A stretch of 64,000 nucleotides of DNA from Streptomyces sp. NRRL F-6676. Lineage in GTDB: Bacteria > Actinomycetota > Actinomycetes > Streptomycetales > Streptomycetaceae. Positions 26,973-51,874 of the stretch are shown here, in pieces. How positions within the stretch are numbered: position 1 is the stretch's first letter; the number at the start of each line of letters is the position of its first letter. Below the pieces are notes generated by a model that saw only the letters and a list, made by a program, of their open reading frames with translations, was not told where the DNA came from and searched no databases. Location of the stretch: positions 62,001-126,000 of the forward strand of contig NZ_KL647083.1 of NCBI RefSeq assembly GCF_000725625.1. Reading direction: 5' to 3'. The translations under genes were made by a program, and so were the position numbers.

Positions 26973-28082
26973 TCAGGCCTTCGGCGACCGCGGCGGTGAG
27001 TCCTCCCGCAGCAGGTCCCCCCTCGGCACCCGTGCCAGCACCGGCGGCTCGTGTTCGCCCTCGTAGCCGAGGTGGAGTTCGCGGTGGGCGCGGGTGGCCA
27101 GGACGTAGTACGCCATGCGCAGGGTCGCGGACGTGGGGTCCTCGGCGGCGTCGGAGTGGGTGTCGGGGACGACCACGGTGTCGAAGCCGAGCCCCTTGGC
27201 GCTGCGGCGGTGGACGAGGACGATGCCGGGCCGGCCCAGGTCGAGGTTGCGGTACTGGCCGCCCCTCGCGTCGGATGTGTAGAGCTGCGGCTTGAGCCGC
27301 GGTGCCCGGCGCGACAGGCTGCCCAGCAGGGAGAACTGGGTGTGCTTGGAGTTGGTGATCACGCCGATGCTCCGTCGGGGGTGCTGTTCGGCCAGCAGGA
27401 TCAGCAGGTCGGCGGCGCCTCGTTCGGGGAAGCGGTGCAGGCGTGGCGGCGGCCCCTGCCGGTCGGGGAGGACCGGCTGCGCGGTGCCGGTGTGGAAGTG
27501 GGCGGCCAGCGCGGCTATCTGGGCGGTGTTGCGGTGGTTGCCGTCGAGTTCGTGACGGGTGCAGTGGCCGAGCCGTCCGGTGATCTCCTCCACCGTGGAG
27601 TTGGTGTCGGTGAGCCGCTGGTACTGGTCCGCGCAGACCGTCGTGCGGGCGCCCAGCATCCGGCAGAGCGTGTAGAACTCCGGCGGCAGGTCCTGGCCTT
27701 CGTCGACGACCAGTGTGAGACCGGGGACGGGACCGGTGCCGGCGGCACGGTCCCAGAGAGCCGGCCAGTCGTACCAGTCGCCGGAGCGCGGCGCGCCCGG
27801 CCCGTACCACTCGGCGAGCCACGCGTGCGCGGTCGTGACGCGGACCGAGCGGTCGCCGGGCCCCAGCGCGTGCACCGCCCCGGCGAGCGACTGGCGCAGC
27901 AGGTTGGAGTAGGTCAGCAGCGTCACCGGGGTGCCGGTGAGGGCGAGCATGACGGCGCGCTGCACGGCCAGCAGGCTCTTGCCGGTGCCGGGCGGGCCGC
28001 TGATCAGGTGGTTGCCGTCGAAGGGGAGTCCGTCCAGGCAGCCGCGCTGGTCCGAGGTGAGGTCGAGGTAGGTGAGGGTCAT
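26973..28082 (-). CDS. UvrD/AAA-type ATPase of the DISARM-like minus operon
   Basis: A 369-aa superfamily 1 helicase-like ATPase. It has Walker A SGPPGTGKS (K35), Walker B VVDEGQDLPPEF (D127), an ADQYQRL motif III and a C-terminal VHRRSAKGLGFDTVVVPDTH plus YVLATRAHRELHLGY resembling UvrD motifs V and VI. It is shorter than UvrD because the 1B/2B insertions are missing. ATG 28082 overlaps the drmB stop (ATGA), so it is the last gene of the sigma-drmA-drmB operon. It occupies the place where DISARM usually has the PLD-type drmC, and no PLD motif is visible. Confidence 0.82.
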   Translation of the reverse strand: MTLTYLDLTSDQRGCLDGLPFDGNHLISGPPGTGKSLLAVQRAVMLALTGTPVTLLTYSNLLRQSLAGAVHALGPGDRSVRVTTAHAWLAEWYGPGAPRSGDWYDWPALWDRAAGTGPVPGLTLVVDEGQDLPPEFYTLCRMLGARTTVCADQYQRLTDTNSTVEEITGRLGHCTRHELDGNHRNTAQIAALAAHFHTGTAQPVLPDRQGPPPRLHRFPERGAADLLILLAEQHPRRSIGVITNSKHTQFSLLGSLSRRAPRLKPQLYTSDARGGQYRNLDLGRPGIVLVHRRSAKGLGFDTVVVPDTHSDAAEDPTSATLRMAYYVLATRAHRELHLGYEGEHEPPVLARVPRGDLLREDSPPRSPKA

Positions 28083-29953
28083 GCCTGCTCCAGTGCGTCG
28101 GCCGCGGCGGCCCGGGCGGCGGTGACGATCGTCTCCAGGTAGCCGGGTACGTGTGCGCCGCCGACGACGAGGGCCCGGTCCAGCAGGGTGTTGCCGGTCT
28201 CGCAGCTGGTCTCGGGGAGCAGCGCGCAGGCGTGGCAGGCGGCGCGGTTGAGGTTGCCGAAGCCCTGGCCGGTGTGTTCGGCGCACAGCGGGTCGGCCGA
28301 GCACCAGGCGGCGGCCTCGGTCATCCGCAGCAGGGTCTCGGCCAGGCGCGGCGGTTCACCCTGGCGGACGAGGCCGCCGAGGGTGCCCTCGGCGTCCCCG
28401 GCGGCGGTGTAGACGAGGATGCCGTACTGGTCCTGTTCGGGGCGGGCGTAGATCCGTTCGCGCAGGCTCGCCGTGGTGTAGCCGGACTCGAAGGAGAGCT
28501 GGCGGATCAGCAGGTGGGCGAGGGTGTGCAGAAGCACGAACCGGGGGGCGAGTTCCGCGCCGGTCAGCGCTTCGAGGCGGTCCTTCTGGAAGGAGCGGTC
28601 GAGGTCGGCGCGCATTCCGGCCACGTGCGCGCGGACGTCCCGGTCGTCCTCCCACTCCGACAGCGCCGTGCGGTTCAGCGTGAGGAACAGGCCCTCGCCG
28701 AACACCTCGACGGCCGGCAGCCACTTCAGCCGGCGGGCGGTGTCGACGGGGACGACGGTCGCGTCCGGGGAGACCCGGGTGAAGCCGGACAGGGCACGCA
28801 CCTCCCGCAGCCGATCCGCGAGGACGATCCGGCCGAAGCGGTGGCCGAGCGCGGCCCAGGGGTCGGTGGTCTCACCGGCGAGGCCGAGCGTCGTCTCGCG
28901 GAGTGCGAAATCCCGGGTGGCGGGCGGTACGGGGGCGATGAACGCGGCCCACTCCTCCCGGCTGAGATCGAGGCGAGCCGCTCCACCACCGGCGTCGGAA
29001 GCCGCGCCCGCATCACCGGACGGCCCGCCCGGAGGCGCCGCCTCTCCGGTCTCCTCCTCCAGCAACGCGTCGAGCAGCGCCTCGTCCGCCCCGGTGTCCT
29101 CCTGAATGATCGTCCGGTACATGACTGCCCGCGGCGTCCCCGCCACCTGGCACAACGGCACCCACAGATGGTGCGCACGCACCTCGTCCGCGCGAGCGTC
29201 GTCCGCGTGCGCGGGCACGTCCGTCTCCGGGATGTCGAGTGCCGAGTGCGTGACCGGGTAGTACAGGTTGCCGGCCGTGCGCTGCACGATCTGCACCGGC
29301 CGGACGCAGTCCACCGCGTCACCGGCCCGCTGCCAGGGGTTGCGTCCCGAGCAGCGCATGCCGTGGGTGCCGAGGATGTCGAGCAGATCCCGGCCGGCGC
29401 CGCAGCCCTTGGCCGTGCAGACGACGGACAGCGCCTCCAGGCCGGAGGCCCGTTCGGAGACCTGGAAGCGCAGCCGCTCACGTTCGCCGCAGTTGCGGCG
29501 TTCACCCGCGTCGCGCTGGGAGTGGGCCCAGAACCACCAGTCGACGTCACTCAGGTGCCCGGCCTGGCAGATCTGCACGAACCGCATGGGCGCCAGGGTC
29601 CGCGCCGGTGAGCAGGACGGGCAGCGCGGCGGCTGCCCGGGCTTCTCGTCGGCGATCCGCCACCGCTTCATCCGCCGGCAGGCGCCGCAGAACAGCCAGG
29701 ACGGGAAGCGGATGTACGGGGCCCCTGGCGCGTCGGGGACGTCGAAGCGGTCGTTGACGGTGGCGGGCGCGGCGTGGAAGCCGCTGACCCCGAGGCGGGC
29801 GGCGAGCCGGGCCGACTCGATCCGCTGCCTGCCCCTGGCCGGCCAGTCCCCGATGCCCGTGGCCACGAACGACTCACCCTGGATGTCGAAGACGGCCCCG
29901 ACGCCGAACGGCACCACCGTCTGCGACTGGCGTACCCGGAGCGTGCGGCTCAC
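28079..29953 (-). CDS. drmB: DrmB-like DUF1998 protein
   Basis: A 624-aa protein of the DrmB family of DISARM antiphage systems. The N terminus begins with RQSQTVVPFGVGAVFDIQGES, followed by a Cys4 zinc ribbon (CGACRRMKRW then CPSC). The C-terminal DUF1998/MZB-type region has HTLAHLLIRQLSFESGY, CSADPLC and the Cys-rich NLNRAACHACALLPETSCE. The GTG start overlaps the drmA stop (GTGA). In DISARM, DrmA and DrmB form a complex on DNA, and this adjacency fits. It has no nuclease motif of its own. Confidence 0.85.
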   Translation of the reverse strand: MSRTLRVRQSQTVVPFGVGAVFDIQGESFVATGIGDWPARGRQRIESARLAARLGVSGFHAAPATVNDRFDVPDAPGAPYIRFPSWLFCGACRRMKRWRIADEKPGQPPRCPSCSPARTLAPMRFVQICQAGHLSDVDWWFWAHSQRDAGERRNCGERERLRFQVSERASGLEALSVVCTAKGCGAGRDLLDILGTHGMRCSGRNPWQRAGDAVDCVRPVQIVQRTAGNLYYPVTHSALDIPETDVPAHADDARADEVRAHHLWVPLCQVAGTPRAVMYRTIIQEDTGADEALLDALLEEETGEAAPPGGPSGDAGAASDAGGGAARLDLSREEWAAFIAPVPPATRDFALRETTLGLAGETTDPWAALGHRFGRIVLADRLREVRALSGFTRVSPDATVVPVDTARRLKWLPAVEVFGEGLFLTLNRTALSEWEDDRDVRAHVAGMRADLDRSFQKDRLEALTGAELAPRFVLLHTLAHLLIRQLSFESGYTTASLRERIYARPEQDQYGILVYTAAGDAEGTLGGLVRQGEPPRLAETLLRMTEAAAWCSADPLCAEHTGQGFGNLNRAACHACALLPETSCETGNTLLDRALVVGGAHVPGYLETIVTAARAAAADALEQA

Positions 29954-32900
29954 AGGTCGGCTCCCTTCACCATGACCTGGCATTCCCGGTCGACGTTGCG
30001 CATGGAGTTCGGTGTCTCCCAGAGGCCGTAGTTCTGTTCGAAACTCTTGATCAGGTTGGTCTGTCCCTTGCCCTGGCCGCGGTAGTAGAGCTCGCGGCCG
30101 TCCCGGCGGGCCTCGCGTGCGGCGTCCTCCCAGTCGGCGATCAGCCCGGCCAGTTCCTTGCGGACCTCGTCCCCGGCCGACGGCTCGGCCGCCTCGGCCC
30201 GGACCGCCAGCTCCTCCGCGAGCGCCTCCACTTCGGGCAGCCGGTCGAGGATCTGTCCGGCCTGGTTCTCGGCGGCGAGCCCGAGCCGGTGCCGTACGAG
30301 GACGACGAGCGCGGCGTGCAGCGCCCGCCGCCGCGAGGGCACGGACCAGGGGGTGACGCTGGTCGGCTCGACGTGCCGGTACAGCGAGCGGTGGTAGACA
30401 TCGAAGGTCTCGTAGTGCGAACGGTCCCTGGGCCGGGTGGCGTTGAAGAAGGTGACGACGAGACCGGGCACGGAGTGCCGGCCCACCCGGCTGGTGGCCT
30501 GGATGTACTCGGCGGTGGTCTTGGGCTGGCCCTGCATCAGCATCAGCGCGAGCCGCTTGACGTCGACACCGACGGACAGCATGTTCGTGCAGGGCAGGAA
30601 GGACACCGACTGCGGGTCGTCCCACCGCTTCTCCAGCCGGTCGAGCAGCACGGGCTGTTCGGCACGCGGCAGGTTGCTGGTCAGCTCCTGCACCTGGTGG
30701 TCCGCCAACTGCCGTACGCCATCGCCGGTACCGGGGTCGAGGCCGGCGAGCTGGGCGGGGATGTCGTCGGCCGCCGCGGTGACGGTGCGGCCGAGTTCGC
30801 GCAGGCTGTGGTGGTAGGCGACGAGGGTCCAGTAGGCGTCCCGGTGCTCCTCGGGCAGCTCGTACGCGCCCTGGAGCAGCGCGGCCGCGGTGGCGACGGC
30901 GGCGCGGCCGGCGGTGTGTCCCTGAGCCATGACGCCGAGGTAGCGGCGACCGGGGCGGGAGGTGTCGGGTTCGGCGAAGTAGGAGTGACGGGCGTCGAGT
31001 CCGGCCGGCGGGAAGAGCTGGACGCCGCCACCGTACAGGGCGCGGACCTGCTCGCCGGAGCGGCGGATGGTGGCCGTGGAGGCGACCACCTTGGGGCCGG
31101 TGCCGTCGGGCGCGGTGCACAGCCCGAGGACGGCCGCCTCGTACAGGCCGACGGTGGTGCCGAGCGGGCCGGTGAGCAGATGCAGCTCGTCCTGGATGAC
31201 GAGGGACGGCGGCAGGTTCCGTACCGATGTCCCGCCCGTGGCCCCGAACAGCCGTCCGGCGCGCGGTTCCCAGGCCAGCCGGGCGAACTTGTCGACGGTG
31301 CCGAGGACGAAGGTGGGCGGCCGGTCGTAGAGCTGCTCGTCGACGACGGCGACGGGCAGTTCGTCGTGGAAGACGCAAGTCTCGCGCGGGCAGAAGAAGG
31401 CGAAGGAGTCGGCGCCGGCGCGCACTCCGTAGTCGCCGATGTCGGGCGACTTGTGTGCGGGCAGAACGCGTGTGCCGCACCAGGGGCAGCGGTCGAGGAT
31501 GAACACGTCCTCCGGCCGGGCGGCCTGGCGGGCGTTGTCGAGGGCGGCGCGGGCCTTCTCGTAGGTGTTGGGTGTGGTGGTCTCGCCCACCCACAGACCG
31601 ATGGAGAAGGGCTCCTCGCCGTACGTGGCCGGATCGGCACGGCGCAGGGTCTCCAGGGCGCAGACGGTGGTGGCGGCGCGCTGGAACTGCTGGGTGGTGA
31701 GCAGGCTGAGGGTGTAGCGGCTGAGTACGGCGGTACCGCCGCCGTCGGGTCGGCGGCGGCGCAGCACCATGGCGAACGCGGCCAGCAGCAGGTAGGCCTC
31801 GGTCTTGCCGCCACCGGTGGGGAACCAGATCAGGTCGGTGACGGACCGGTCCGGGTGCCGGGGGTCGGACACCCCGTCCAGGGCGAGCAGGAAGAACGCG
31901 AGCTGGAAGGGGCGCCAGTCGGCGTCGGCCGCGGGCTCCGCGCCTGCCGGTACGGCGTCCCGGCGGGATCGCCGGGTGCCCGCGAGGTCGGGCGCGGAGT
32001 GCCGCATTTGCAGGGCCATCGCGCGGTTGGCGGCGCGGAAGGCGTGCAGCAGCTCGGGACGGCGCGGATCGCACAGGGTGCGGACGCCGGACTCGACGCG
32101 GGTGACGGCGGCGTTGATCCGGCCGAGCACCCGGTCGGCGGCGTCGCGCCCCCACTCGGGGATGTCCGCGTTGAGCTGCCCCACGTACCAGGCGCGGTAG
32201 TCGGCGGCGAACTCGGCCAGCTCCTCGCGCAGTTGGTCGACGGGAACGTCCGGGTCGGCGAGGTGGCACAGGTTGAGCACAGGTGAGCCGCTGGGGCCGG
32301 CCGCCCGTACACCGGTGACCTCCGCCTCGGGGAGCACGGCGGCGCGCAGCCCGGTGACTCGCTCACCCGTCTCGTCGTACCGCTCCTCGACCGCGCATCC
32401 GTGGCCGACGGCGTGGGTACGGACGTGCCGGTACTGCAACCGCAGTTCCTGCTCCTCGGGGTCACGGCTGGCCAGGCGCACGCTCGGGTACTGGAGCACC
32501 CTGCCGTTCACCGGCCGCCCCTCCAGCTCCACCTGGAACAGCATGCGGTCCCAGTGGGCGGCCCTGCCGAGGCCGGGTTCGTGCGTGGCGGAGTTGACAA
32601 GGGCGACGGTGACGAGCTGCCCGGTGCCGAACGCCCGTCGCCGCAGCCGGAGTTCGGCGCGGCCGTCCAGTACGGGAACGTGATCGCGGTCGGGGCCGAG
32701 GGTGTGCGTCTCGGCGGGCAGTGGAATGCGCTGCCAGCTCCGGCCGCGCTCACCCGTGCGCGAGCGGGTCGCGTAGTGGGCGGCCGCGCAGACGACCTCC
32801 ACGGTGTCGGCGTCGGTGTAGAAGCTGAAGCCGAGGGAGGAGGGCAGCCAGGAGTTGGACTCGGGTACGGGGTCCCCGGCCGGTGCGGTGTCCTCGGCCC

Positions 32901-33093
32901 GCCCCTCCGTCCCCGCCCCCTCGCGCTCCTCAGCGGCGAGGTCCAACTGGCGCTGGAGGTCGGCTTCCTGGGGGTAGAGGGTGCCCATCAGGTACTGGCG
33001 GTCGGGCGGGGCGTCGAGTGTCTCGTGCGCACCGCGGGCCGGGCCGACGAGTTGCCGCCGGAGGTAGGAGACGAGTTCGTGTCGGGGATCCAT
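29950..33093 (-). CDS. drmA: DrmA-like superfamily 2 helicase
   Basis: A 1047-aa helicase of the DISARM DrmA type. Walker A is FPTGGGKTEAYLL (about residue 424-433), the motif II box is DELH (D635) and motif VI is QATSRVGRHSVPGLVVTFF. The C terminus ends in SMRNVDRECQVMVKG. ATG 33093 follows AGGA at normal spacing. It lies 59 bases downstream of the sigma-like gene and overlaps drmB. DrmA normally loads on single-stranded or entering phage DNA with DrmB. That function is taken from the family. Confidence 0.86.
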   Translation of the reverse strand: MDPRHELVSYLRRQLVGPARGAHETLDAPPDRQYLMGTLYPQEADLQRQLDLAAEEREGAGTEGRAEDTAPAGDPVPESNSWLPSSLGFSFYTDADTVEVVCAAAHYATRSRTGERGRSWQRIPLPAETHTLGPDRDHVPVLDGRAELRLRRRAFGTGQLVTVALVNSATHEPGLGRAAHWDRMLFQVELEGRPVNGRVLQYPSVRLASRDPEEQELRLQYRHVRTHAVGHGCAVEERYDETGERVTGLRAAVLPEAEVTGVRAAGPSGSPVLNLCHLADPDVPVDQLREELAEFAADYRAWYVGQLNADIPEWGRDAADRVLGRINAAVTRVESGVRTLCDPRRPELLHAFRAANRAMALQMRHSAPDLAGTRRSRRDAVPAGAEPAADADWRPFQLAFFLLALDGVSDPRHPDRSVTDLIWFPTGGGKTEAYLLLAAFAMVLRRRRPDGGGTAVLSRYTLSLLTTQQFQRAATTVCALETLRRADPATYGEEPFSIGLWVGETTTPNTYEKARAALDNARQAARPEDVFILDRCPWCGTRVLPAHKSPDIGDYGVRAGADSFAFFCPRETCVFHDELPVAVVDEQLYDRPPTFVLGTVDKFARLAWEPRAGRLFGATGGTSVRNLPPSLVIQDELHLLTGPLGTTVGLYEAAVLGLCTAPDGTGPKVVASTATIRRSGEQVRALYGGGVQLFPPAGLDARHSYFAEPDTSRPGRRYLGVMAQGHTAGRAAVATAAALLQGAYELPEEHRDAYWTLVAYHHSLRELGRTVTAAADDIPAQLAGLDPGTGDGVRQLADHQVQELTSNLPRAEQPVLLDRLEKRWDDPQSVSFLPCTNMLSVGVDVKRLALMLMQGQPKTTAEYIQATSRVGRHSVPGLVVTFFNATRPRDRSHYETFDVYHRSLYRHVEPTSVTPWSVPSRRRALHAALVVLVRHRLGLAAENQAGQILDRLPEVEALAEELAVRAEAAEPSAGDEVRKELAGLIADWEDAAREARRDGRELYYRGQGKGQTNLIKSFEQNYGLWETPNSMRNVDRECQVMVKGADL

Positions 33094-33152
33094 GTCGTTC
33101 CTGGTGATCGCGGTCTGTGGACTTCTCGGACAGGAGGCGGGGACTGGGCGGC

Positions 33153-36100
33153 TCAGGGCCGACGCCAGCGGTCCCGGAGGGAGGTACGGCTGCCGGCCGC
33201 CTCCTGTACGACGGCGAGCTGCGCCTGGGCTTCGGCGAGCCGGGTACGGGCGTCGGCGAGCTGCGCCTGGGCGTCGCCGAGCTGCGCCTGGGTGTCCGCG
33301 AGCCGGGCCCGCAGATCGGTGAGGGCGACCCATGCCTCGTGCTCGCTCCGCGCGATGCGCTCGGTGGCCTGCCGCTCGGCCTCCTCGGCACTCGCGCGGG
33401 CTGCCACGACGAACCGGTCCCGCCGCGCGAGCTCGGCCTCGCTCTCCCCCAGCCGCCGCTCCAGCTCGGTCACACGTGCCTGGGCGCCCCGGCGGTACTC
33501 CTCCCGTGCCGACGCGACCGCGCGCTCCCGCTCGGCCGCGGCCGCCTCGGCCTGCCGCAGTTCGGTCTCCCGCTCGGCGCCGACCGCCCGGGCGTCCGCC
33601 AGCCGCGACTCGAGGTCGCCGATCCGGGTCTCGGCACCCTCCCGGTACGCGCGCAGCCACTCCCGGTGCTGCTCCCTCACGTGCGCGAGCCGCTCCTCGG
33701 CCTGCCGCTGGAGATGCCTCTCGCGCCGCTCCCGTACCTGGTCCGCACGGTGCAGCAGTTCCTCCTCCCACGCGTCGAGCTGCCGCTCGCCCTCCGCCCG
33801 GGCCGCCGCGAGACGTTCGTCGGCGCTGCGGCGCTCCTCCTTCAGCCGACGGCCGTACTCCCGCACGAGCAGTGCCAACCTGACCTCACGCCGGGTCCGC
33901 GCCCCGGCGACCAACCCATCGACGTCGTCCGTCAACGGCGCCATGCCGGCCGGGGGTTCGACCGTCAGCGGTACAGCCGCCGACAGCGACTCCTCCACCG
34001 CGGGAACGACCTCCGGCTCGGCCGCCACCGGTTCCACGGCCGCCGGTGCCACGGTCGACGGCTCGACGGCCGGCGACTCGACTGCCGTCGGCTCGATCGC
34101 CTCCACCGGCGGCTCCACCCGCGGCGGTCCGACCCGCGCGTGCTGCCCCGCCGACGTTGCCGCGTGCCTCGCGGTGAACTCGCTCAGCGCGTCGCGCACG
34201 GCTCGGCGCGGCTCGGCGCCCGTCAGGGGCGCCGTACGAAGGTGCGCCCGCGGCGCCACGCCGGCCAGTGCCTTCGCGGGGTGCTCGAAGAAATGTTCGG
34301 GCCGCAGCCCCAGCTCCCGCACGCCGTCGAATACCTCCCGGAGCACTTCGAGCGCCTGCACCACGGGGCGGTCGAGCGTCCCCTTCTCCCGCGCGGCCCG
34401 CACCACCGCGTCCGCCGCGGACGAGCCCAGCAACGCCGTCAGCTGCCGCTGCCCCAGCGCCAGCACCGCGTACTCCGCGAGCCAGGGCACGCCTCCGCCC
34501 ATGGGCGCTTGCGCCAGCGCCAGGGCCCTGCCCCACTCGGCGGTGATCTCCGGCGCGCCCGCACCCTCCGGTGCCTCGATCTCTTCCAGTTCCTCCGCCG
34601 TCTCCGGGCGGGCCGGCACCGCGGCCAGGAACTCACGCAGCGCGTCTCGCACCGCGAGCCGCGACTCGCCGTTCACCAGCGGCCTGGCCGCGAGGTAAGC
34701 ACCGGGCGTCGCCCCGCGAAGCGCTTCGGTGGGCCGTTCGAAGAAGTCCTCGGGCCGCAGCCCCGCATCCGCGACGTGGTCCAAGACGCGTCGGAGTACT
34801 TCGAGCGCGGTCAGCACCGGCCGGTCGGCCGGCTCCCGGTCCCGGGCGACGCTCACGACCGCCTCGGCCGCGGTCTGCCCGAGGTACGCCACGAGATCTT
34901 CCTGCCCCATGGCGGCGAGCACGTACTCGGCGAGCCAACTCTGCCCGCCGGGCGCCTTCGCCAGCCGAAGGGCACGCGTCCAGTCGGCGGCGACCACGTC
35001 CGGCTCCCCGACGCGCACACTCTCGCCACCGTCAGGGGCCGCCCGTCCGGGCTCCGCCGGGACCTCCGCGCCGCTGGAAACCTCCGGAGCAGGCTCCACG
35101 GGTGTCTCGCCGCCCCCCGGAACCGCCGTCAGGGCCTCTTCCGAACCCGCCTCGCCGCCACCCGGAACCGCCGTCACGGCCTCTGCCGAACCCGCCTCGC
35201 CGCCAGCCGCGACCGCCCGCACGGCCTCCGCCAGTACCGGCTCCACCCGCAGGGGCTCCACCGTGGCCTCCACCGCGCTCTCCGGCCGGGTCGCACTCTC
35301 CGCCCGCGCCACGCGCGCCGCCCGGACCGGCCGTTCCGCCCGGGCCCGGCGAAGGGCCTGCCGGGCGCGGGCGATCCGCGCCGCATGCGTCGCCCGTGCG
35401 TACCGCGCCGCCCTCGCGGCCGCCGCCGCTTTCTCCGCCGCCCGCTCGGCCCTCTCGCACGCCGCGTCGAGGCCGACCAGGCCCACCTCGCGCAGCCGCT
35501 CCCGCAGCGCGGGCCGCATCTTCGCCTCGATCTGCCGGATGCGCTCCCGTGTGACGCCGAACTCGCCTCCGAGTTCGTCCAGTGTCGAGGGATCTTCCCC
35601 GTCGAGCGCGAGGCGCCGCACGAGAATCCTCGCCTCCCGCTCCGTGAACGTGCCCACCAAGTCCAGCACGTCCCGCACGAAGAGCGCCCCCACCACCTGC
35701 TGCTCCACCGGCGGCAGCACATGCGTGCGCGCCACGAAGTCGGCGAGGGTCGCGCCGTCGCCGATGACGCGGTCCAGCGAGTCCGTACGGCGGCTAAGCC
35801 GCCGGGCGTGCTCCACCTTCTCCAGGGTCATGTCGCAGGCCACCGCCACGTCCGCCGCGGTCACCGGGCGCCCCCGCGCGGCCAGGTTCCGCTCGGCAGC
35901 CGCCACCTTGCGCACCTGCTCGTGCATGTGGACGGGGATGCGGATGAGGGCCCCCTCATCGGCGATGGCCCGGCTCATCGACTGCCGGATCCACCAGGTC
36001 GCGTACGTCGAGAACTTGTTGCCCATCCTCGGGTCGAACTTCCGCGCCGCCCGCATCAGCCCCAGCACACCGTGCTGGACCAGGTCTTCGTACTCCAGCC

Positions 36101-36929: not shown

Positions 36930-36999
36930 ATCGGACGACTCCTCCCCGTTCACAGGTCGCAGCACCGTCCCGGTCACCCCCCAGCTTGTTTCACTCAGG

Positions 37000-37028
37000 A
37001 CCGTAAGTCTGCGCGTTGATGATGTCAA
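37000..37028 (-). promoter_or_regulatory. Promoter of the giant sigma/drmAB operon
   Basis: On the minus strand TTGACA (37028-37023) is followed after exactly 17 bases by TACGGT (37005-37000), fitting TTGACa-N17-TAnnnT. Transcription would start near 36993, giving a leader of about 65 bases before GTG 36929. The -35 lies in GTTGATGATGTCAAC (37015-37029), an inverted repeat with 5-bp arms that could be an operator. A second TACGGT lies on the plus strand at 37064-37069, near the kinase-helicase start. Confidence 0.65.
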
Positions 37029-37125
37029 CAGACTAGACGCTACCGCTCCTCACCCATCTCGTGTACGGTGACGAACACTCAGCGCGCACAGAGGAACACG
37101 GACCACGGTGACAAGGGGAGCGGCA

Positions 37126-43470: not shown

Positions 43471-43509
43471 CCGCCCGCATCCGGCCCTTCGAGGAAACAG
43501 ACGACTGAC

Positions 43510-46500
43510 ATGGCACTCACGTACTCCGCCGGCTCGCTGGTGACCGCTCGCGGCCGGGACTGGGTCGTGCTCCCCGAGAGCGAGCCCGACCTGCTGGTAC
43601 TGCGCCCGCTGGGCGGCTCGGACGACGACATCGCGGCGGTGTTCCCGGCCTTCGAGACGGTGAAGGGCGCCGAGTTCGCACCCCCGGTCCCCGGCGACCT
43701 CGGCGACCAGCGCGCCGCCGGCCTGCTGCGCACCGCGCTCCGCGTCGGCTTCCGCTCGGGCGCGGGCCCGTTCCGCTCGCTGGCCGGGATCGCCGTCGAG
43801 CCGCGGGCGTACCAGCTCGTCCCGCTGCTGATGGCGCTCCGGCAGCGGACCGTGCGCATGCTGATCTCCGACGACGTCGGCATCGGCAAGACGGTCGAGG
43901 CGGGTCTCGTCGCGAGCGAGCTGCTGGCGCAGGGCGAGGCGACGGGCCTGGCGGTGCTGTGCTCGCCCGCGCTGGCCGAGCAGTGGCAGCAGGAACTGCG
44001 TACCAAGTTCGGCATCGACGCCGAGCTGGTGCTGTCCTCGACGGTCTCCCGCCTGGAGCGGGGCCTGGACCTCGGCCAGTCCCTCTTCGACCGCTACCCG
44101 CACGTCATCGTCTCCACGGATTTCATCAAGTCCACCCGCCACCGTGACGACTTCGTGCGCCACTGCCCCGATCTGGTGATCGTCGATGAGGCGCACACCT
44201 GTGTCACCGCCGACGACACGAAGGTGAGCACGCAGAACCAGCTCCGCCACGAGCTGCTGCGCCGCGTCGCCGAGGACGCCGAGCGCCACCTGCTGCTCGT
44301 GACGGCGACCCCGCACAGCGGCAAGGAGTCCGCGTTCCGCAACCTGCTGGCCCTGGTCAGGCCCGAACTGGCGGACGTGGACCTGGACTCGGAGTCCGGC
44401 CGCAAGCTGCTCGCCCAGCACTTCGTGGCGCGCAAGCGGGCGGACGTACGGCAGTACCTCACCAAGGAGGACGGCCTGGCGGACGACTCGCTCGCCGAGC
44501 GCACGGCGTTCCCCTCGGACCGCTACTTCAAGGACGAGACGTACAAGCTCTCCCCCGCCTACCGGGCCCTCCTCGACGACGCGATCGCCTACGCGAGCGA
44601 GCGCGTGGAGGAGGCGGACGGCCGGGGCCGGCGCGAGGCCCGTATCGCCTGGTGGTCGGCGATCGCGCTGCTGCGCTCGCTGGTGTCGTCCCCGAGGGCG
44701 GCGGCGCAGACCCTCCGGACCCGTTCGGCCGCCGCGGTGGCCGCCTCCGCCGAGGAGGCCGACCGGCTCGGCGCCCCGCTCACCAGCGACTCCGCGGACA
44801 GCGACGCGCTGGAGGGCATGGACGTGGCCCCCGGCGCCGAGACGGAGGAGAACGCGGGCTCACGTCTGGCCGAACTCGCCACACGCGCCAAGGAGTTGGA
44901 GGGACCGGCACAGGACCTGAAGCTCAAGGCGCTCATCAAGCATCTCAAGGCGCTGCTGGCCGACGGCCACAACCCGATCGTCTTCTGCCGCTACATCCCG
45001 ACCGCCGAGTACCTGGCGGACCAGCTCGGCAACGACCCCGAGGCGAAGAAGCGCGGTCCGCTCGGCGCGCGGACGGTCGTCAAGGCGGTCACCGGCACGC
45101 TCTCCCCGCAGCAGCGCATCGAACGCATCGAGGAGCTGGCGGCGGAGGCCGGCGGGGACGCCGCCGCGCGCCGGGTCCTGATCGCCACCGACTGCCTCTC
45201 CGAGGGCGTCAACCTCCAGCACCGCTTCGACGCCGTCCTCCACTACGACCTGGCCTGGAACCCCACCCGGCACGACCAGCGCGAGGGCCGCGTCGACCGC
45301 TACGGGCAGAAGCGCGACGAGGTCCGCGTCATCACGCTGTACGGCGAGGACAACGGCATCGACGGCAAGGTGCTCGAGGTGCTGATCAAGAAGCACCGCC
45401 AGATCAAGAAGGACCTCGGCATCTCGGTCTCCGTCCCCGACGAGATGTCGACGGGCGTCACGGACGCGATCGTGGAGTGGCTGCTGCTGCGCGGCCGCCA
45501 GGGCGAGCAGGAGGCGCTGTTCGAGTCGGACGCGTTCCAGCAGAGCTTCGCCGACCTGGAGCAGGACTGGAACTCGGCCGCCGACCGGGAGAAGGCGTCC
45601 CGCTCGCGGTTCGCGCAGCGCTCGATCCACCCGGAGGAGGTGGCCCGCGAGGTCGCCGCAGTGCGGGAGGCGCTGGGCGGGGCGGGCGAGATCGACACGT
45701 TCGTACGGGAGTCGCTGCACGCGCTCGGCGCGGTGCTGCGCGAGTCCGGCGGACCGGGCGCGTCCGGCTCGCCCGGCGGGTCCGGCGCGTCCGATTCGTC
45801 CGCCTCGTCCGGCGCGGACTTCACCGCGCAGGTCGGTGGCACCCCGGCCGGCCTGCGGGACGCGCTCGCCCCGGTGGTCGGCCCGGAGACGGTGGAGCAG
45901 GACCGCCCGATCCCGTTCCGCACGGACCCGGCGGTGGCACGCGGCGAGGCCGCCCTCGTCCGCACGGACCCGGTGGTGGGCGCGCTCGCCTCCCACGTGC
46001 TGAACGCCGCCCTGGACCCCGAGGCGGACGGCGCCCGCCCGGCCCGCCGCTGCGGTGTCGTCACGACGGACGCGGTGAGCACGCGCACCACGCTGCTCCT
46101 GGTCCGCTACCGCTTCCACCTCACCCTGCCGTCCCGCAACGGCGACAAGCAGCTCGTGGCGGAGGACGCCCGCCTGCTCGCCTTCGAGGGCGCCCCCGGC
46201 AAGGCGGTCTGGCTCCCGCCGGAGCGTGCAGCGGCGTTGCTGGACGCACAGGCGACGGAGAACACCGCCCCGGCTGCCGGCGAGCGCACGATGACCCGCA
46301 TCCTCGGCCAACTGGACGACGTACGCCCGTACCTGGAGTCGTACGGCGACGACCTGGCCGCCGAGCTGGACGCCTCGCACCGCAGGGTCCGCGCGGCCTC
46401 CGGCGAGATCGTCCGCGGCCTGTCCGTGACGGCCCAGAAACCGGCCGACGTCCTGGGCGCCTACGTCTACCTGCCCGCCGCTCCCTCCGCCGTCCCGGCG

Positions 46501-46551
46501 TCCGCCGCCTCCGCCTCCGCCGCCTCTGCCTCCGCTGGAGTGACCGCCTGA
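43510..46551 (+). CDS. drmD: DrmD-like SNF2-family helicase
   Basis: A 1013-aa Swi2/Snf2 ATPase. Walker A is SDDVGIGKTVEAGL (K127), motif II VDEAH (D226-H229), motif III VTATPHSGK, and motifs V-VI ATDCLSEGVNLQ and HDQREGRVDRYGQ. This is the architecture of DrmD in class 1 DISARM (RapA/HepA-like). A Ser/Gly/Ala-rich linker lies at about 745-775, and the tail is a Ser-Ala repeat. It starts 39 bases after the kinase-helicase and its stop overlaps the methyltransferase start (TGATG). It may remodel or translocate DNA for the modification module. Confidence 0.86.
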   Translation: MALTYSAGSLVTARGRDWVVLPESEPDLLVLRPLGGSDDDIAAVFPAFETVKGAEFAPPVPGDLGDQRAAGLLRTALRVGFRSGAGPFRSLAGIAVEPRAYQLVPLLMALRQRTVRMLISDDVGIGKTVEAGLVASELLAQGEATGLAVLCSPALAEQWQQELRTKFGIDAELVLSSTVSRLERGLDLGQSLFDRYPHVIVSTDFIKSTRHRDDFVRHCPDLVIVDEAHTCVTADDTKVSTQNQLRHELLRRVAEDAERHLLLVTATPHSGKESAFRNLLALVRPELADVDLDSESGRKLLAQHFVARKRADVRQYLTKEDGLADDSLAERTAFPSDRYFKDETYKLSPAYRALLDDAIAYASERVEEADGRGRREARIAWWSAIALLRSLVSSPRAAAQTLRTRSAAAVAASAEEADRLGAPLTSDSADSDALEGMDVAPGAETEENAGSRLAELATRAKELEGPAQDLKLKALIKHLKALLADGHNPIVFCRYIPTAEYLADQLGNDPEAKKRGPLGARTVVKAVTGTLSPQQRIERIEELAAEAGGDAAARRVLIATDCLSEGVNLQHRFDAVLHYDLAWNPTRHDQREGRVDRYGQKRDEVRVITLYGEDNGIDGKVLEVLIKKHRQIKKDLGISVSVPDEMSTGVTDAIVEWLLLRGRQGEQEALFESDAFQQSFADLEQDWNSAADREKASRSRFAQRSIHPEEVAREVAAVREALGGAGEIDTFVRESLHALGAVLRESGGPGASGSPGGSGASDSSASSGADFTAQVGGTPAGLRDALAPVVGPETVEQDRPIPFRTDPAVARGEAALVRTDPVVGALASHVLNAALDPEADGARPARRCGVVTTDAVSTRTTLLLVRYRFHLTLPSRNGDKQLVAEDARLLAFEGAPGKAVWLPPERAAALLDAQATENTAPAAGERTMTRILGQLDDVRPYLESYGDDLAAELDASHRRVRAASGEIVRGLSVTAQKPADVLGAYVYLPAAPSAVPASAASASAASASAGVTA

Positions 46552-49500
46552 TGTCCGCCACCACCCGCAACCAGGTGTTCACCGCCGTCCACACGGTCGG
46601 CGGCCTGCTCCCGGCCGACATGCTGGTCCGCGTCTCCGAGGGCAAGGACGTCCCCGGCTCGGGCCCCGCCGACTACGGCCTGCCGTCCTCGCGTTCGGTA
46701 CGGGACGAGGCGGAGCGCAGCTGGGAGTACCTCAAGCCGCTCTGGCGCGACCTGCGCAAGCACCTGCCCGGTTCGACGGAGACGGGCGCCCCGTCCACCG
46801 ACCCCACCGGCCGCGCCGACACGGACTGGCTCGCCCCGCTCTGGCGCGAGCTGGGCTTCGGCCGGCTCACCCCGGTCGGCCCGGCGGGCATCACGGCGGA
46901 CTCGGACCCGGAGAAGAAGTTCCCCGTCTCCCACCACTGGCAGCACGCCCTCGTCCACCAGACCCCGTGGAACGCGGAGCTGGACAAGCGCCCGGCCGGC
47001 CCGGGCAGCGTCCCGCCCCAGTCCATGCTCCAGGAGTGCCTGAACCGCACGGAGGCCCACCTGTGGGCCGTCCTCACCAACGGCCGCCAGGTCCGCCTCC
47101 TCCGCGACTCCAGCGCCCTCGCGACGGCGTCCTACGTCGAGTTCGACCTGGAGTCGATCTTCGACGGCGAACTCTTCAGCGAGTTCGTGCTGCTGTACCG
47201 GCTGCTGCACGTGTCCCGGTTCGAGGTGGCGGAGGGGGCGGCGCCGTCGGCTTGTTGGCTGGAGAGCTGGCGGACCGTCGCCATCGAGTCCGGCACCCGC
47301 GCGCTGGAGCACTACCGTGACGGCGTCCAGGCCGCCCTCACCGCGCTCGGCACGGGCTTCCTGCGCCACCCCGACAACGCGGCACTGCGCGAGAACCTGG
47401 ACCCGGCCGCGTTCCAGTCCGCTCTGCTCCGCCTCGTCTACCGGCTGATCTTCCTCTTCGTCGCCGAGGACCGTGAGGCCCTACCGGACCCGCGGGCCGA
47501 CGGGCGGGACCGCGACCGCTACACCCGCTACTTCTCCACCGTCCGCCTCCGCGAGCGCGCCCTGCGCCGGACCGGCACCGCCCACAGCGACCAGTACGAG
47601 GCCCTGCAACTCGTCCTCGCCGCCCTCGGTGACGAGGAGGGCCGCCCCGAGCTCGCCCTGCGCGGCCTCGGCGGCCTGTTCAACACCACGGACGCCGACG
47701 CGCCCCTCGACGGCGTCCGCCTCTCCAACCGGTACTTCCTGGAGGCCGTACGCCACCTCGCCCGCGTGCGCGACCACGGCTCCTCGCGCTGGCGCCCGGT
47801 CAACTACCGCAACATGGGCGCCGAGGAACTGGGCTCGGTCTACGAGGCGCTGCTGGAGCTGGTCCCCAAGCACAGCGCCTCCGACCGCACCTTCGCCCTC
47901 GTCGACCGCCTCGGCAACGACCGCAAGAAGACAGGCAGTTACTACACACCCACCGCGCTCACCGAGACCCTCCTCGACTCGACGCTGAACCCGGTGATCG
48001 ACGCCGCCGTCGCGCGCGGTGAGGAACGGGCCGCGGCGGCGGGCCGCACGGACCCCGCCGACGCCTCCGACGCGATCGTCGAGGAACTGCTCTCCCTCAC
48101 CGTGTGCGACCCCGCCTGCGGCTCCGGCCACTTCCTCGTCGCCGCCGCCCGCCGCATCGCCAAGCGGGTCGCCTCCGTCCGCGAGCGCAACCCCGAGCCG
48201 ACGGCGGAGGCGGTACGGCACGCGCTGCACGAGGTGGTCGAGCGCTGCGTCTACGGCGTCGACCTCAACCCCATGGCCGTGGAGCTGGCCAAGGTCTCCC
48301 TGTGGCTGGAGGCCATGGAACCGGGCCGTCCGCTGGGCTTCCTGGATGCCCATATCCGGCACGGCAACGGCCTGATCGGCGCGACGCCCGCGCTGATGCG
48401 GGACGGCATCCCCGACAAGGCGTTCAAGAAGGCCGAGGGCGACGACGAGGCCTGGGCGAAGATGCTGCTCGCCCGCAACGAGCAGGAACGGGCGGGACAG
48501 GGCGGCCTGTTCGACGTCGAGTCCGAGACGCGGGTCGCCAACACGGCGTTCGCGTCCGGCCTGCGCCGCATCACGACGGCGCCCGCGCACGACCTCGCGG
48601 ACGTACGCCGCAAGGAGGCCGCGTTCCGCGAGTGGTCGACGTCCGGCGACTACCGGCAGGCACTGCACCTCGCCGACGCGTGGTGCGCGGCGTTCGTGTG
48701 GGTCAAGCGGGAGGACGCACCGCCGGCCCTCACGGACAAGGTGTTCCGCGGCCTGGAGGACCCCGAGGGCGACGCGGCCCCCGAGTCCACGCACGAGGAG
48801 ATCACCCGCCTGCGGGACCAGTACGCGTTCTTCCACTGGCACCTGGAGTTCCCGGAGATCTTCACGGTCCCGGAGGACGGCTCCGGGGAGTCGGCGAAGG
48901 TCGACCCGGGCACGGGCTGGGCGGGCGGGTTTTCGTGCGTGGTGGGCAACCCGCCGTGGGACAAGGTCGACTTCGAGGACAAGAAGTACTTCAGCGTGGT
49001 CGACCCGGACATCGCGGCGATCTCCGGTACGGCTCGGCGTACGCGGATCGCGGAATGGGAGATCGAGCACCCGGAGGCGGGGGCGCGGTACCGGGAGGCG
49101 CGGCGGACGGTCAAGGGGAACTTCCATTTCCTCGGGAACTCGGGAGTGTTCCCGCTGTGCGCGAAGGGGCTGACGGTCAAGGGCGTCAACTCTCTCCAGA
49201 CCGACACCTTGTTCGCCGAGCGCATGTCCAGTGTGGTGGGGCCAGAGGGGCGGTTCGGCGTGATCCTGCCGACCTCCATCGCGACGGGAGCGGGCTCACA
49301 GCACCTCTTCTCCCACTTCACCAGGCAGAAGTCATTGGTCTCGCTGTACGACTTCGAGGTGAGGCGTCCCAGGTCGGCAGCGCTGCCCCAGGGCGGCAAG
49401 TGGTTCGACATCGACTCAAAGCAGTCGTTCTGCCTGCTCTCCCTCACTGGGCGTGGCCTGCGGCAGAGTGCTGCTCGGTTCGGCTTCTCCATCGGCGACA

Positions 49501-50708
49501 TCACCGAACTCGATGATCCCGAGCGCGTCTTCGCCTTGAGTTCAGAGGACCTGGCCCTCATCAACCCCAATACGGGCACGCTTCCCAAGTTCCGTTCCCA
49601 GCGTGATGCAGCCCTGGCGGCAGACATCTATCGGCGTATCCCGGTGCTGTGGGATGAGGGACGTCGGAACGGCAACCCCTGGGGCATCCTCTTCAAACGC
49701 CTCTTCGACATGACCGACGACTCCGACCTCTTCCGCTCACGGAAGGAACTGGAGGACGCCGGCTGGTTGTTGGACGGGAACGTGTTCCTGCGCGGTAAGG
49801 AACGGATGCTGCCCCTGTACGAAGGGAAGATGGCGCACCTGTTCGACCACCGTTGGAACAGCTACACCGGAACGGGCACCGAGGACCGCCGTCGAATCGA
49901 CCCCGTCGAGAAGCAGGACCCGGCCGCCTGCGCCGACCCGCGCTACTGGGTCGCGGAGCATGGACCAATCGCCACCGTCCGCAAGGGCAAGGAGCTGAAG
50001 GAACGTGGCATCGCGGACCGCCTCGGCGAAGTGAACTGGGAGCATGACTGGTTGATCGGCTGGCGTGACGTCACGTACTTCACCAACGAGCGAACGGCCA
50101 TTCCCGCGTTCCTGCCACGAGCCGCCGTCGGCCACACGTACCCCCTGATGCTCCCGCGCGTCTCGCCGCCCCTGGTCGCCACCCTCATCGCCACCCAGTC
50201 CTCCTTGATCTTCGACTTTGTCAGCCGGCAGAAGATCAGCGACGCGCACATGAAGCTGTTCGTGTGGAAGCAACTGCCCGTCCCCACCCCCACCACCCTC
50301 GAACCGCACCTCCCCTTCCTCCTCCCCCGCGTCCTGGAACTCGTCTACACCGCCAACGACATGACCCCCCTCGCCCGCGACCTCGGCGACGAGGGCGAGC
50401 CGTTCCGTTGGGACGAGTCCCGTAGGGCTCAGCTCCGTGCCGAGCTGGACGCCTACTTCTTCCACCTGTACGGCATCTCCGCCGAGGACACCGACTACAT
50501 TCTGGAGACCTTCCAGTCTGAGTCGGGCGGCCTCAAGAACAACGAGATCGCCAAGCACGGCGAGTACCGCACCAAGCGCCTCGTCCTCACCGAGTACAAC
50601 CGCATGGCGCAGGCCGACCTCACCCTGGAGTCCCCCCTCGTGGGCAGCGAGGCCTACACCTCGCCCCTCACTCCACCCCCTGGCCACGGCCCCCGCCACA
50701 GCGCCTGA
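46551..50708 (+). CDS. drmMI: DrmMI/Eco57I-like N6-adenine DNA methyltransferase
   Basis: A 1385-aa methyltransferase. The SAM motif [16 protein letters not shown] (from 520) precedes the catalytic NPPW (800-803), the gamma-class order seen in type IIG, PglX and DrmMI enzymes. [17 protein letters not shown] is the usual lead-in. I see no clear nuclease motif, so modification only is likely. The target-recognition region (about 49180-50110) uses codons less biased to G/C than the rest, as if exchanged. The catalytic site predicts adenine methylation of host DNA at an asymmetric or short site. Distinguishing DrmMI from a PglX relative needs phylogeny. Confidence 0.85.
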
Positions 50709-50746
50709 CAGAGCACACCACCGCCATCCACATCCCAGGGGGGACC

Positions 50747-51874
50747 ATGAGCAACCCGACCCAGCCCGATCCGATGCCCTCGAAGTACGAACTCGAGGTG
50801 TGGGACTCCATCCAGCAGTACAAGGGCCGCCCACTGTCACAGGCGATGCAGAACGCCGGCGAGCACGTGGCCAACGGCGTCACACGGCTCGGCAAGCAGG
50901 CGGCGAAACAGTTGGAGAAGCACCCTCGCGCCGCGTCGGCCGTGTCGCGAGGTCAGGAGTTCGTAGCCAAGGGCGCCTCCAAGGCCGGCGCGAAGGCACG
51001 CAACGCCGCCGAGAACATGCCGGAGTGGGGCGGCACGGCCGTGCAGTCCGTACGGAAGACGGTGGGGAAGATCTCGCGCGCGGGACTCTCTCCCAAGCGG
51101 GTGGTGGCGCTCCACACCAAGCGAGGCCACGAGGTCGCCTCGCTCTCCGACGTGCGCCAACTCGACCTCGAACTCGTTGAGAAGGTGCGCGGCCGGGCGG
51201 CGAACTGGTACTACCCCATCATGGCAGCGCTCTCAGGAGCGGGCGCCGGGCTTGCGATCACCGGTGGACAGCTCGCGATCACCGCCTCCGCCGGCGCCGC
51301 GGCGGCTCCTTCGGCCGGTGCGATCGCGGGAGCGTTCACTGCCGACACCGCAGCCGTACTCGGACTGTCGTCCCGGGCCGTCGGTCAGATCTCCCTGTTC
51401 TACGGATACGACCCCGAAGACCCGTCCGAGAAGCTCTTCATCATGTCTGTCGTCAACTTGGGGACCGCGAGTTCGGCCACTGCCAAGAACGCCGCGATGG
51501 CCGACATCTCGAAGCTCACCCAGGCACTCTTCCGCGGCAAGACGTGGGACGTCCTCAGCAACTCCTTCGTCACCAAGGTCGCCGAGAAGTTCACCAAGGC
51601 GTTCGGCGTCCGCCTCACCAAGAAGGGGCTCGGCAAGGCCGTACCCGCCTTCGGCATCGTCGTCGGTTCCACGCTCAACTGGGCGACGCTGGAAGGGATC
51701 GTCGACGCGGCCGAGATGGCGTATCGACGCCGGTTCCTGCTGGAGAAGTACCCGTACCTCGCGGAGGAGGAGGCGTTCGTGACGTTCACCGACGCGGACG
51801 TCTCCGACGACGTCGACGAGAAGATCAGCGTGCTCGACGAGATCGTCGACGAGGGCGGCCCGGACCTTCGCTGA
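50747..51874 (+). CDS. EcsC-family protein at the end of the defence operon
   Basis: A 375-aa protein with the EcsC signature: YELEVWDSIQQYKG near the N terminus, then the domain from about 120 with LSPKRVVALHTKRGHEVASLSDVRQLDLELVEKV. Two hydrophobic, Ala/Gly-rich stretches (about 162-210) could insert in a membrane. EcsC proteins have no settled activity. It begins 38 bases after the methyltransferase stop behind AGGGGGG, so it probably belongs to the operon. It is a candidate accessory or effector, which is inference. Confidence 0.75.
   Translation: MSNPTQPDPMPSKYELEVWDSIQQYKGRPLSQAMQNAGEHVANGVTRLGKQAAKQLEKHPRAASAVSRGQEFVAKGASKAGAKARNAAENMPEWGGTAVQSVRKTVGKISRAGLSPKRVVALHTKRGHEVASLSDVRQLDLELVEKVRGRAANWYYPIMAALSGAGAGLAITGGQLAITASAGAAAAPSAGAIAGAFTADTAAVLGLSSRAVGQISLFYGYDPEDPSEKLFIMSVVNLGTASSATAKNAAMADISKLTQALFRGKTWDVLSNSFVTKVAEKFTKAFGVRLTKKGLGKAVPAFGIVVGSTLNWATLEGIVDAAEMAYRRRFLLEKYPYLAEEEAFVTFTDADVSDDVDEKISVLDEIVDEGGPDLR

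What the first reader, a model, noticed from the sequence alone, without database searches (positions are those of the whole stretch)
26973..51874. Composite DISARM-like defence island with a kinase, a giant sigma factor and a UvrD-like ATPase
Two divergent operons hold drmA, drmB, drmD and drmMI homologues (seen by motifs), the set that defines class 1 DISARM, but no PLD-type drmC. In its place are three parts I do not know from DISARM: a kinase-helicase-DUF1998 fusion, a 1258-aa sigma-70-like protein and a UvrD-like ATPase, plus an EcsC protein. Overlapping stops and starts within each arm show they are co-transcribed. The combination suggests a signalling-controlled restriction system in which phosphorylation and dedicated transcription gate a DISARM core.
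Basis: partly seen in the sequence, partly recalled or inferred. Interest (0 to 1): 0.93.

Follow-up and report, generated by a model that had tools for sequence, protein, structure and literature searches.

The report
Sigma-linked DISARM beside kinase-fused ARMADA
This stretch of a probable Streptomyces genome holds two neighbouring but separable gene sets of predicted phage defence; in one of them an RNA-polymerase sigma factor travels with a DNA-helicase pair and a small UvrD-like ATPase, which would tie immunity to the cell's transcription machinery.

Summary
The eight genes are real, but they are not one DISARM operon. The plus arm (kinase-helicase-MZB fusion, SNF2 helicase, adenine methylase) has the content and order of ARMADA type I, a published DISARM relative, with a Ser/Thr kinase fused in front. 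This trio is kept in 77-80 of the 80 best relatives; DrmA lies beside it in 16. The minus arm is a second module: sigma-70 factor, DrmA, DrmB, 369-aa UvrD-like ATPase. A sigma gene stood beside drmA-drmB in all 23 loci of this DrmA clade where the stretch was held. In five loci, Frankiaceae by name or kinship, the UvrD-like protein has lost its ATPase motifs and is fused to sigma. Of 25 genomes with this DrmA, 10 also hold kinase-ARMADA, within 30 kb; 15 do not. Sigma as gate of the whole island is not supported: promoter-like elements of the kinase operon also occur in genomes without this DrmA. I read the quartet as a sigma-linked DISARM variant, in which sigma plus UvrD-like likely brings DrmAB to RNA polymerase or promoter DNA. 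No activity was tested; nine paper searches listed no such module.

The parts
33153..36929 (-). giant sigma-70 family protein, 1258 aa: sigma regions 2-4 at residues 258-476; modelled C-terminal part with two helical repeats and a ~235-residue helix
   Evidence: Pfam Sigma70_r2/r3/r4; GTG start, 1258 aa; 126 homologues of the C-terminal part, best 120 listed, every named one Streptomyces; model of residues 481-1258
29950..33093 (-). DrmA, split YprA-type helicase, 1047 aa
   Evidence: PADLOC DrmA 1.3e-207; solved DrmA 7s9v_A E 2.3e-153
28079..29953 (-). DrmB, MZB/DUF1998 protein, 624 aa
   Evidence: NCBIfam DrmB_fam 424 bits, cut-off 240; solved DrmB 7s9v_B E 5.8e-64
26973..28082 (-). small UvrD-like SF1 ATPase, 369 aa, Walker motifs kept
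37126..43470 (+). kinase-YprA fusion (2114 aa): Ser/Thr kinase, DEAD helicase, Helicase_C, MZB, C-terminal PD..VD stretch
   Evidence: Pfam; helicase part in 80 of 80 loci, kinase part matched in 77; 10-row alignment
43510..46551 (+). SNF2/BrxHII-like helicase, 1013 aa (ARMADA partner)
   Evidence: PADLOC 'DpdE' PDLC02853 2093 bits; DrmD NF038317 299 bits, cut-off 610; 79 of 80 loci
46551..50708 (+). PglX/DrmMI-like adenine methyltransferase, 1385 aa, NPPW motif
   Evidence: Eco57I, MmeI_Mtase; NPPW at residue 800; 77 of 80 loci
50747..51874 (+). EcsC-family protein, 375 aa, optional
   Evidence: Pfam EcsC 2.7e-23; 8 of 80 loci, 6 of them at 73-90% identity
37015..37029 (.). palindrome GTTGATGATGTCAAC in the shared intergenic region; read on the minus strand it holds a TTGACA, likely the -35 of the sigma-arm promoter
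   Evidence: alignment of 20 intergenic regions; position; minus-strand -35/-10 pattern in 18 of 21 regions, no chance control made
37060..37069 (+). CGTGTACGGT element upstream of the kinase gene, likely -10 region
   Evidence: GTGTAC in 20 of 20 aligned regions; also upstream of kinase genes without sigma arm

Best explanation
The locus is two adjacent, separable modules: a plus-strand trio with the content and order of ARMADA type I whose YprA helicase carries an N-terminal protein kinase, and a minus-strand quartet in which a sigma-70 factor, the DrmA-DrmB helicase pair and a small UvrD-like ATPase travel together, the sigma-UvrD pair likely acting as one unit that brings DrmAB to RNA polymerase or promoter DNA. 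Both modules are predicted, not shown, to act against phage. Inferred steps: DrmAB senses and moves along single-stranded or unmodified invader DNA, as in DISARM; the sigma domain holds the complex at RNA polymerase or at a promoter bubble, so that transcribed incoming DNA is met early; the UvrD-like protein serves as motor or adaptor. In the Frankiaceae fusions it has lost its ATPase motifs, so there it would be an adaptor only. The methylase, SNF2 helicase and kinase-helicase next door would form their own methylation-guided restriction system, with the kinase as a likely switch.
For: Trio: helicase part in 80, SNF2 in 79, methylase in 77 of the 80 best relatives, same order and strand, the misses lying at contig ends. 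Kinase part matched in 77 of 80: L051 and L062 are cut by contig ends, L071 is not and lacks it in the match. Quartet: sigma beside drmA-drmB in 23 of 23 loci of this DrmA clade where the stretch was held (12 genus-level, the window included, 11 class-level; in G078 the sigma gene spans a contig break). L141 and L172 are cut; L173 is a distant DrmA without sigma or UvrD-like. All 16 head-to-head loci of the other scan with drmA also have sigma; some are the same genomes. In 111 same-genus genomes the 13 with DrmA of 57% or more are the same 13 with UvrD-like matches over most of the protein; two more (G017, G108) have short matches. Fusion: UvrD-like and sigma lie in one ORF right after drmB in 5 of 5 held loci of one family. 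A database search with the UvrD half gave 11 proteins, all with sigma-70 domains (its length filter shuts out stand-alone copies). Walker A in 34 of 35 and Walker B in 35 of 35 stand-alone sequences, in 0 of 5 fusions (two genes are counted twice). Of 40 sigma sequences, 35 keep FSTY of region 2 and 32 the VTRERI-type stretch of region 4. ARMADA: Results of PMC12458937 read in part.
Against: No phage, expression or binding data exist here. Sigma genes often sit with the genes they transcribe, so a purely regulatory role would give the same gene order, apart from the fusion. Some sigma copies have drifted: 5 of 40 lack FSTY and 8 of 40 lack the region 4 pattern, only three of these rows being at contig ends (L035, L131, L132). 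The quartet has no recognised nuclease of its own in the window. The link of sigma to DrmAB was examined only for the window's DrmA clade: 45 of 111 genus genomes have some DrmA at E<=1e-20 and the 32 with more distant ones were not looked at. Within the genus the quartet co-occurs with ARMADA far more than chance (8 genomes with both; 12 and 13 of 111; Fisher p 1.2e-6), and drmA and kinase distances correlate over 17 loci (Mantel r 0.63, p 0.0005; within arms 0.91-0.93), which leaves room for a joint system there. Relatedness of the genomes was not corrected for.
Confidence: 0.5

Rival explanations
1. The sigma factor is a dedicated regulator: it transcribes its own arm (and perhaps other genes) on infection and plays no part in the attack on DNA.
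For: Most sigma copies keep the region 2 and 4 stretches that would bind -10/-35 DNA. A -35/-10 pattern lies in front of the sigma gene in 18 of 21 head-to-head regions (no chance control).
Against: Fusion to a UvrD-like protein without ATPase motifs and a C-terminal part that varies from short to giant point to a protein that does more than start transcription. The sigma-arm promoter looks like an ordinary housekeeping one (consensus recalled), so it needs no dedicated sigma.
Confidence: 0.33
2. One joint system: kinase and sigma gate a DISARM core that spans both arms.
For: Shared intergenic region whose palindrome overlaps the sigma-arm -35; co-occurrence above chance in the genus (Fisher p 1.2e-6) and correlated divergence, r 0.63; where both occur (10 of 25 genomes) they lie within 30 kb (G078 inferred across two contig ends).
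Against: Each arm often stands alone. The exact palindrome with GTGTAC 44-46 bases on occurs upstream of 19 of 60 kinase genes without an adjacent sigma arm (58 had enough upstream DNA), 13 of them in genomes searched and without DrmA at E<=1e-185. Orientation differs: head-to-head in the window group, other side and 13-26 kb apart in G013, G049, G085, G057.
Confidence: 0.15
3. Plain defence-island neighbourhood: two independent systems side by side, with no functional link and with a sigma gene that has no special role.
For: Other defence genes also sit next to the quartet elsewhere: McrBC, PglW, NERD-UvrD, AIPR.
Against: May hold for the arms, but not for the sigma gene, which is present in its arm in 23 of 23 held loci and fused in five.
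Confidence: 0.12

Closest known systems
ARMADA type I (Bell et al. 2025 preprint, PMC12458937)
   Same: YprA-family helicase first, then BrxHII/RapA-like helicase, then PglX-like methylase; [quoted passage not shown]
   Different: A Ser/Thr kinase precedes the helicase in the same protein; the word kinase does not occur in that paper's main text. Its supplement and tree were not available to me.
DISARM (DrmA-DrmB core; cryo-EM 7s9v/7s9w, PMC9142583)
   Same: DrmA and DrmB are clear homologues of the solved pair
   Different: No DrmC, no DrmD or methylase of its own; sigma factor and UvrD-like ATPase instead; the match to solved DrmA starts at its residue 146
MZA system (MzaABCDE)
   Same: Uses a sigma factor, MzaA (PMC9523054 passage), the best NCBIfam model for the window's sigma domain (230 bits); locus L168 adds an MzaE-like AIPR gene (345 bits) and its fusion a stretch matching MzaB (5.4e-8)
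   Different: All NCBIfam scores are below the equivalog cut-offs (800 and 1050); no Mza partner match in the window; that MZA has no DrmAB is from recall
BREX type 2 (PglW kinase, PglX methylase)
   Same: Kinase plus adenine methylase in an actinomycete defence operon (by recall; PMC12839542 passages)
   Different: No PglZ, BrxD or PglY among the rows shown (lists capped at 25); the PglW model scores 44.5 bits against a cut-off of 990
Druantia type III (DruE)
   Same: DruE models match the helicase part (PADLOC E 6.6e-102)
   Different: No DruH among the rows shown; kinase, SNF2 and methylase partners instead

Membership tests
DISARM | DrmA helicase | tested here: met
   PADLOC DrmA 1.3e-207; 7s9v_A E 2.3e-153
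DISARM | DrmB (DUF1998/MZB) | tested here: met
   NF038324 424 bits over cut-off 240
DISARM | DrmC PLD nuclease in the operon | tested here: not met
   no PLD match in the eight window proteins by Pfam
DISARM | class 1 DrmD and DrmMI belonging to the DrmAB operon | tested here: not met
   SNF2 and methylase lie on the other strand and go with the kinase-helicase in loci without DrmAB; DrmD model 299 bits, cut-off 610
DISARM | EVE-like N-terminal domain of class 1 DrmA | tested here: inconclusive
   alignment to 7s9v_A begins at its residue 146; the fold of the N-terminus was not predicted
ARMADA type I | YprA helicase, BrxHII-like helicase, PglX-like methylase, in this order | tested here: met
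   families; order kept in 77 of 80 loci
ARMADA type I | place in the ARMADA clade of the YprA tree | not tested
   no reference sequences of the paper were at hand
ARMADA type I | C-terminal Vsr-type nuclease | tested here: inconclusive
   PD..VD stretch present in the window; a loose pattern for it in 55 of 76 proteins of 2000 aa or more
MZA | MzaA sigma factor | tested here: not met
   230 bits against 800, sigma domain only
MZA | MzaB-E partners | tested here: not met
   no such row for the window proteins (lists for sigma, kinase, SNF2 and methylase were partly capped at 25 rows; DrmA was not scanned against NCBIfam)
BREX type 2 | PglZ and full PglW | tested here: not met
   no PglZ row shown; PglW 44.5 bits, cut-off 990 (same caps)
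Druantia III | DruH + DruE pair | tested here: inconclusive
   DruE-like match; no DruH among the rows shown, some lists capped

The most novel reading that the evidence does not exclude
A class of transcription-coupled restriction: a sigma factor, alone or fused to a dead UvrD-like ATPase, plugs the DISARM helicase core DrmAB into RNA polymerase, so that incoming DNA is attacked when it is first transcribed rather than by sequence or methylation alone.
Probability: 0.3. Interest if true: 0.92.

Novelty: new variant of a known kind. Interest (0 to 1): 0.72.

Why it matters
DrmC appears not to be essential for DISARM, and how DISARM picks its target is still argued (PMC9142583 passages). A lineage in which its core comes with a sigma factor, even fused to the partner ATPase, gives a direct handle: test whether transcription is part of target choice. 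It also links DISARM to MZA, another defence system with a sigma subunit, and adds a kinase-fused form of ARMADA spread over many actinomycete genera.

Full report
1. Observation. The ORF table, codon-position GC and start-codon list show four genes on each strand, diverging from an intergenic region of about 200 bases (36930-37125). Minus: sigma-70 (1258 aa), DrmA (1047), DrmB (624), UvrD-like (369). Plus: kinase-helicase-MZB (2114), SNF2 helicase (1013), adenine methylase (1385), EcsC (375). Start and stop overlap at 3 of 6 junctions; gaps of 59, 39 and 38 nt separate the others.

2. The plus arm is a module of its own. One of the two peptide patterns of that scan lies in the kinase domain, so the set leans towards kinase-bearing proteins and towards close relatives. 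tblastn of the window proteins finds the kinase-helicase in 80, the SNF2 gene in 79 and the methylase in 77 of 80, in one order and strand; the misses (L084; L052, L056, L084) are at contig ends. The kinase part is matched in 77: L051 and L062 are cut by contig ends, L071 is not and lacks it in the match. DrmA of more than 60% identity is in 16 of 80, all Streptomyces or Kitasatospora, each divergent from the kinase gene; L035 has a sigma gene cut by a contig end; L037, L041 and L092 keep only an N-terminal part of a sigma gene. Gene content and order are those of ARMADA type I as described in PMC12458937 (Results, parts 1 and 2 of 3 read). The paper names no kinase in its main text. Of 76 kinase-helicases of 2000 aa or more, 75 keep the HRDLKP motif and 76 a DFG. 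In 111 same-genus genomes 15 full-length YprA-part loci were found: 13 with open frames long enough for the kinase and 2 (G003, and the second copy in G022) of about 1,780 aa, which leaves no room for it.

3. The minus arm is a second module, and sigma is part of it. In the same 111 genomes 45 have a DrmA match at E<=1e-20; 13 have one of 57% identity or more, and only these were followed. The UvrD-like protein gives matches over most of its length in the same 13, and short ones in two more (G017, G108). Loci of these genomes and of class-level hits (394 genomes searched, 16 with DrmA at E<=1e-185, four of them already in the genus set; loci; genes) show a sigma-70 gene beside drmA-drmB in 23 of 23 loci where the stretch was held: 12 genus-level (the window included; in G078 the sigma gene spans two contig ends) and 11 class-level. 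L141 and L172 are cut by contig ends. L173 is a second, more distant DrmA (44%) of genome G449 with neither sigma nor UvrD-like. The 16 head-to-head loci of point 2 all have sigma too, some being the same genomes. Sigma length varies widely (393 or 518 aa in L135 by the start taken, about 1,280 aa in L143). In G090, G073, G088, G355 and G340 (L143, L144, L145, L165, L166) a NERD-UvrD homologue precedes drmA (NERD domain seen by Pfam in the two tested).

4. Fusion. In L167-L171 (five genomes of family f18) the UvrD-like protein and sigma are one ORF right after drmB. A search with the UvrD half returned 11 proteins, all with sigma-70 domains; stand-alone copies could not appear because of the length filter. 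The eight named ones are Frankia, Pseudofrankia, Parafrankia and Protofrankia, and four of the five genomes share contig lengths with them (G215, G427, G411, G442); G387 is in the same genus group as G442. All five fusions lack the Walker A lysine and the Walker B DExQ; of 35 stand-alone sequences of 280 aa or more (two genes counted twice: L087/L129, L139/L140), 34 keep Walker A and 35 Walker B; the exception, L162, is the split frame. In L168 an AIPR gene follows the fusion that matches MzaE (345 bits, below the cut-off of 1050), and the fusion's C-terminus matches MzaB (5.4e-8). Fusion is classic evidence that two proteins act together; here the UvrD half is unlikely to be an ATPase.

6. 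Are the arms one system? For: 8 genomes hold both, against 12 with kinase-ARMADA and 13 with the quartet among 111 (Fisher p 1.2e-6; 6.9e-6 without G000); distances of drmA and kinase over 16 loci plus the window correlate (Mantel r 0.63, p 0.0005), less than within arms (0.93 and 0.91). Where both occur they lie within 30 kb (10 genomes: the 8 plus G396 and G404; in G078 each part lies at a contig end, so adjacency is inferred). Against: of 25 genomes with this DrmA (G099 and G395 cut) 15 have no kinase-ARMADA at E<=1e-100; of 45 genomes with kinase-ARMADA searched (42 of the 60 loci without sigma match, plus 3 with a remnant) 37 have no DrmA at E<=1e-185, 2 a distant one and 6 one of 71-79% (from the coordinates 5 of these 6 look like neighbours 12-26 kb away). 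18 of the 60 were not searched. Two orientations exist.

7. Promoters. Twenty aligned intergenic regions, including those of L041 and L092 with a sigma remnant, share a palindrome (consensus GTTGAC-N3-GTCAAC; the GTCAAC half exact in 19 of 20, the other half more variable) and, some 45 bases on, GTGTAC (20 of 20). On the minus strand a TTGAC with a TANNNT 17-19 bases after the hexamer is found in 18 of 21 regions with a sigma gene or remnant (not L037, L039, L092); no chance control was made. The exact palindrome with GTGTAC 44-46 bases on occurs in 10 of 20 loci with sigma and upstream of 19 of 60 kinase genes without an adjacent sigma arm (58 with enough upstream DNA); 16 of the 19 lie in genomes searched, 13 of these without DrmA at E<=1e-185. 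So in those genomes the kinase operon keeps these elements without this sigma module. Other loci without sigma lack one or both elements or have diverged.

8. Reading. I take the quartet as a sigma-linked DISARM variant and the trio as kinase-fused ARMADA. What is shown: gene sets, conservation, fusion, motif loss. What is inferred: antiphage activity, contact of sigma with RNA polymerase, DrmAB recruitment, kinase as switch. The best rival is a regulator role for sigma.

Noticed in passing
window 53576-55030: NucA/NucB-type DNase gene in a stretch of 56-58% GC, against about 65-75% around it, so probably acquired recently.
   Followed up: no
window 61855-63669: 604-aa protein matching PADLOC type II restriction enzyme and PDC-S14 models (E 7e-18 and 3e-12).
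   Followed up: no
L160 (G000:C9:17000-36900): The same genome has a second DrmA-DrmB locus (40% and 49% identity) with an SNF2-like gene and a 636-aa gene upstream; may be an ordinary DISARM.
   Followed up: partly
L168, L169 and relatives: Loci with DrmA-DrmB, the UvrD-sigma fusion and an MzaE-like AIPR gene (MzaE match tested in G215 and G387): a DISARM/MZA hybrid.
   Followed up: partly
L184, L186-L189: MZA-like loci carry a ~480-500-aa protein whose C-terminal domain is 31-35% identical to the C-terminal domain of the UvrD-sigma fusion; no sigma match seen there.
   Followed up: partly
L164 3343-7956: A full PglW (BREX-2 kinase, 1613 bits, cut-off 990) lies next to the sigma gene of a quartet.
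   Followed up: no
L133, L135, L137, L140, L161, L162: McrC-type gene beside the quartet in all six; in L135 with an AAA_5 gene and a 711-aa UvrD helicase; a ~440-aa gene without Pfam match follows the UvrD-like gene in four of them and in L141.
   Followed up: partly
[not shown]
   Followed up: partly
L027, L029, L032, L047, L092, L105: The six close EcsC homologues (73-90%) among 80 loci all lie in loci with the sigma arm or its remnant.
   Followed up: no
L028 1493-9712: Four genes upstream of a kinase-ARMADA without sigma arm have sizes like Wadjet JetA-D (by recall, not searched).
   Followed up: no
L071: A trio copy away from contig ends whose match lacks the kinase part (residues 312-2112 matched); loss or frame break not examined.
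   Followed up: no
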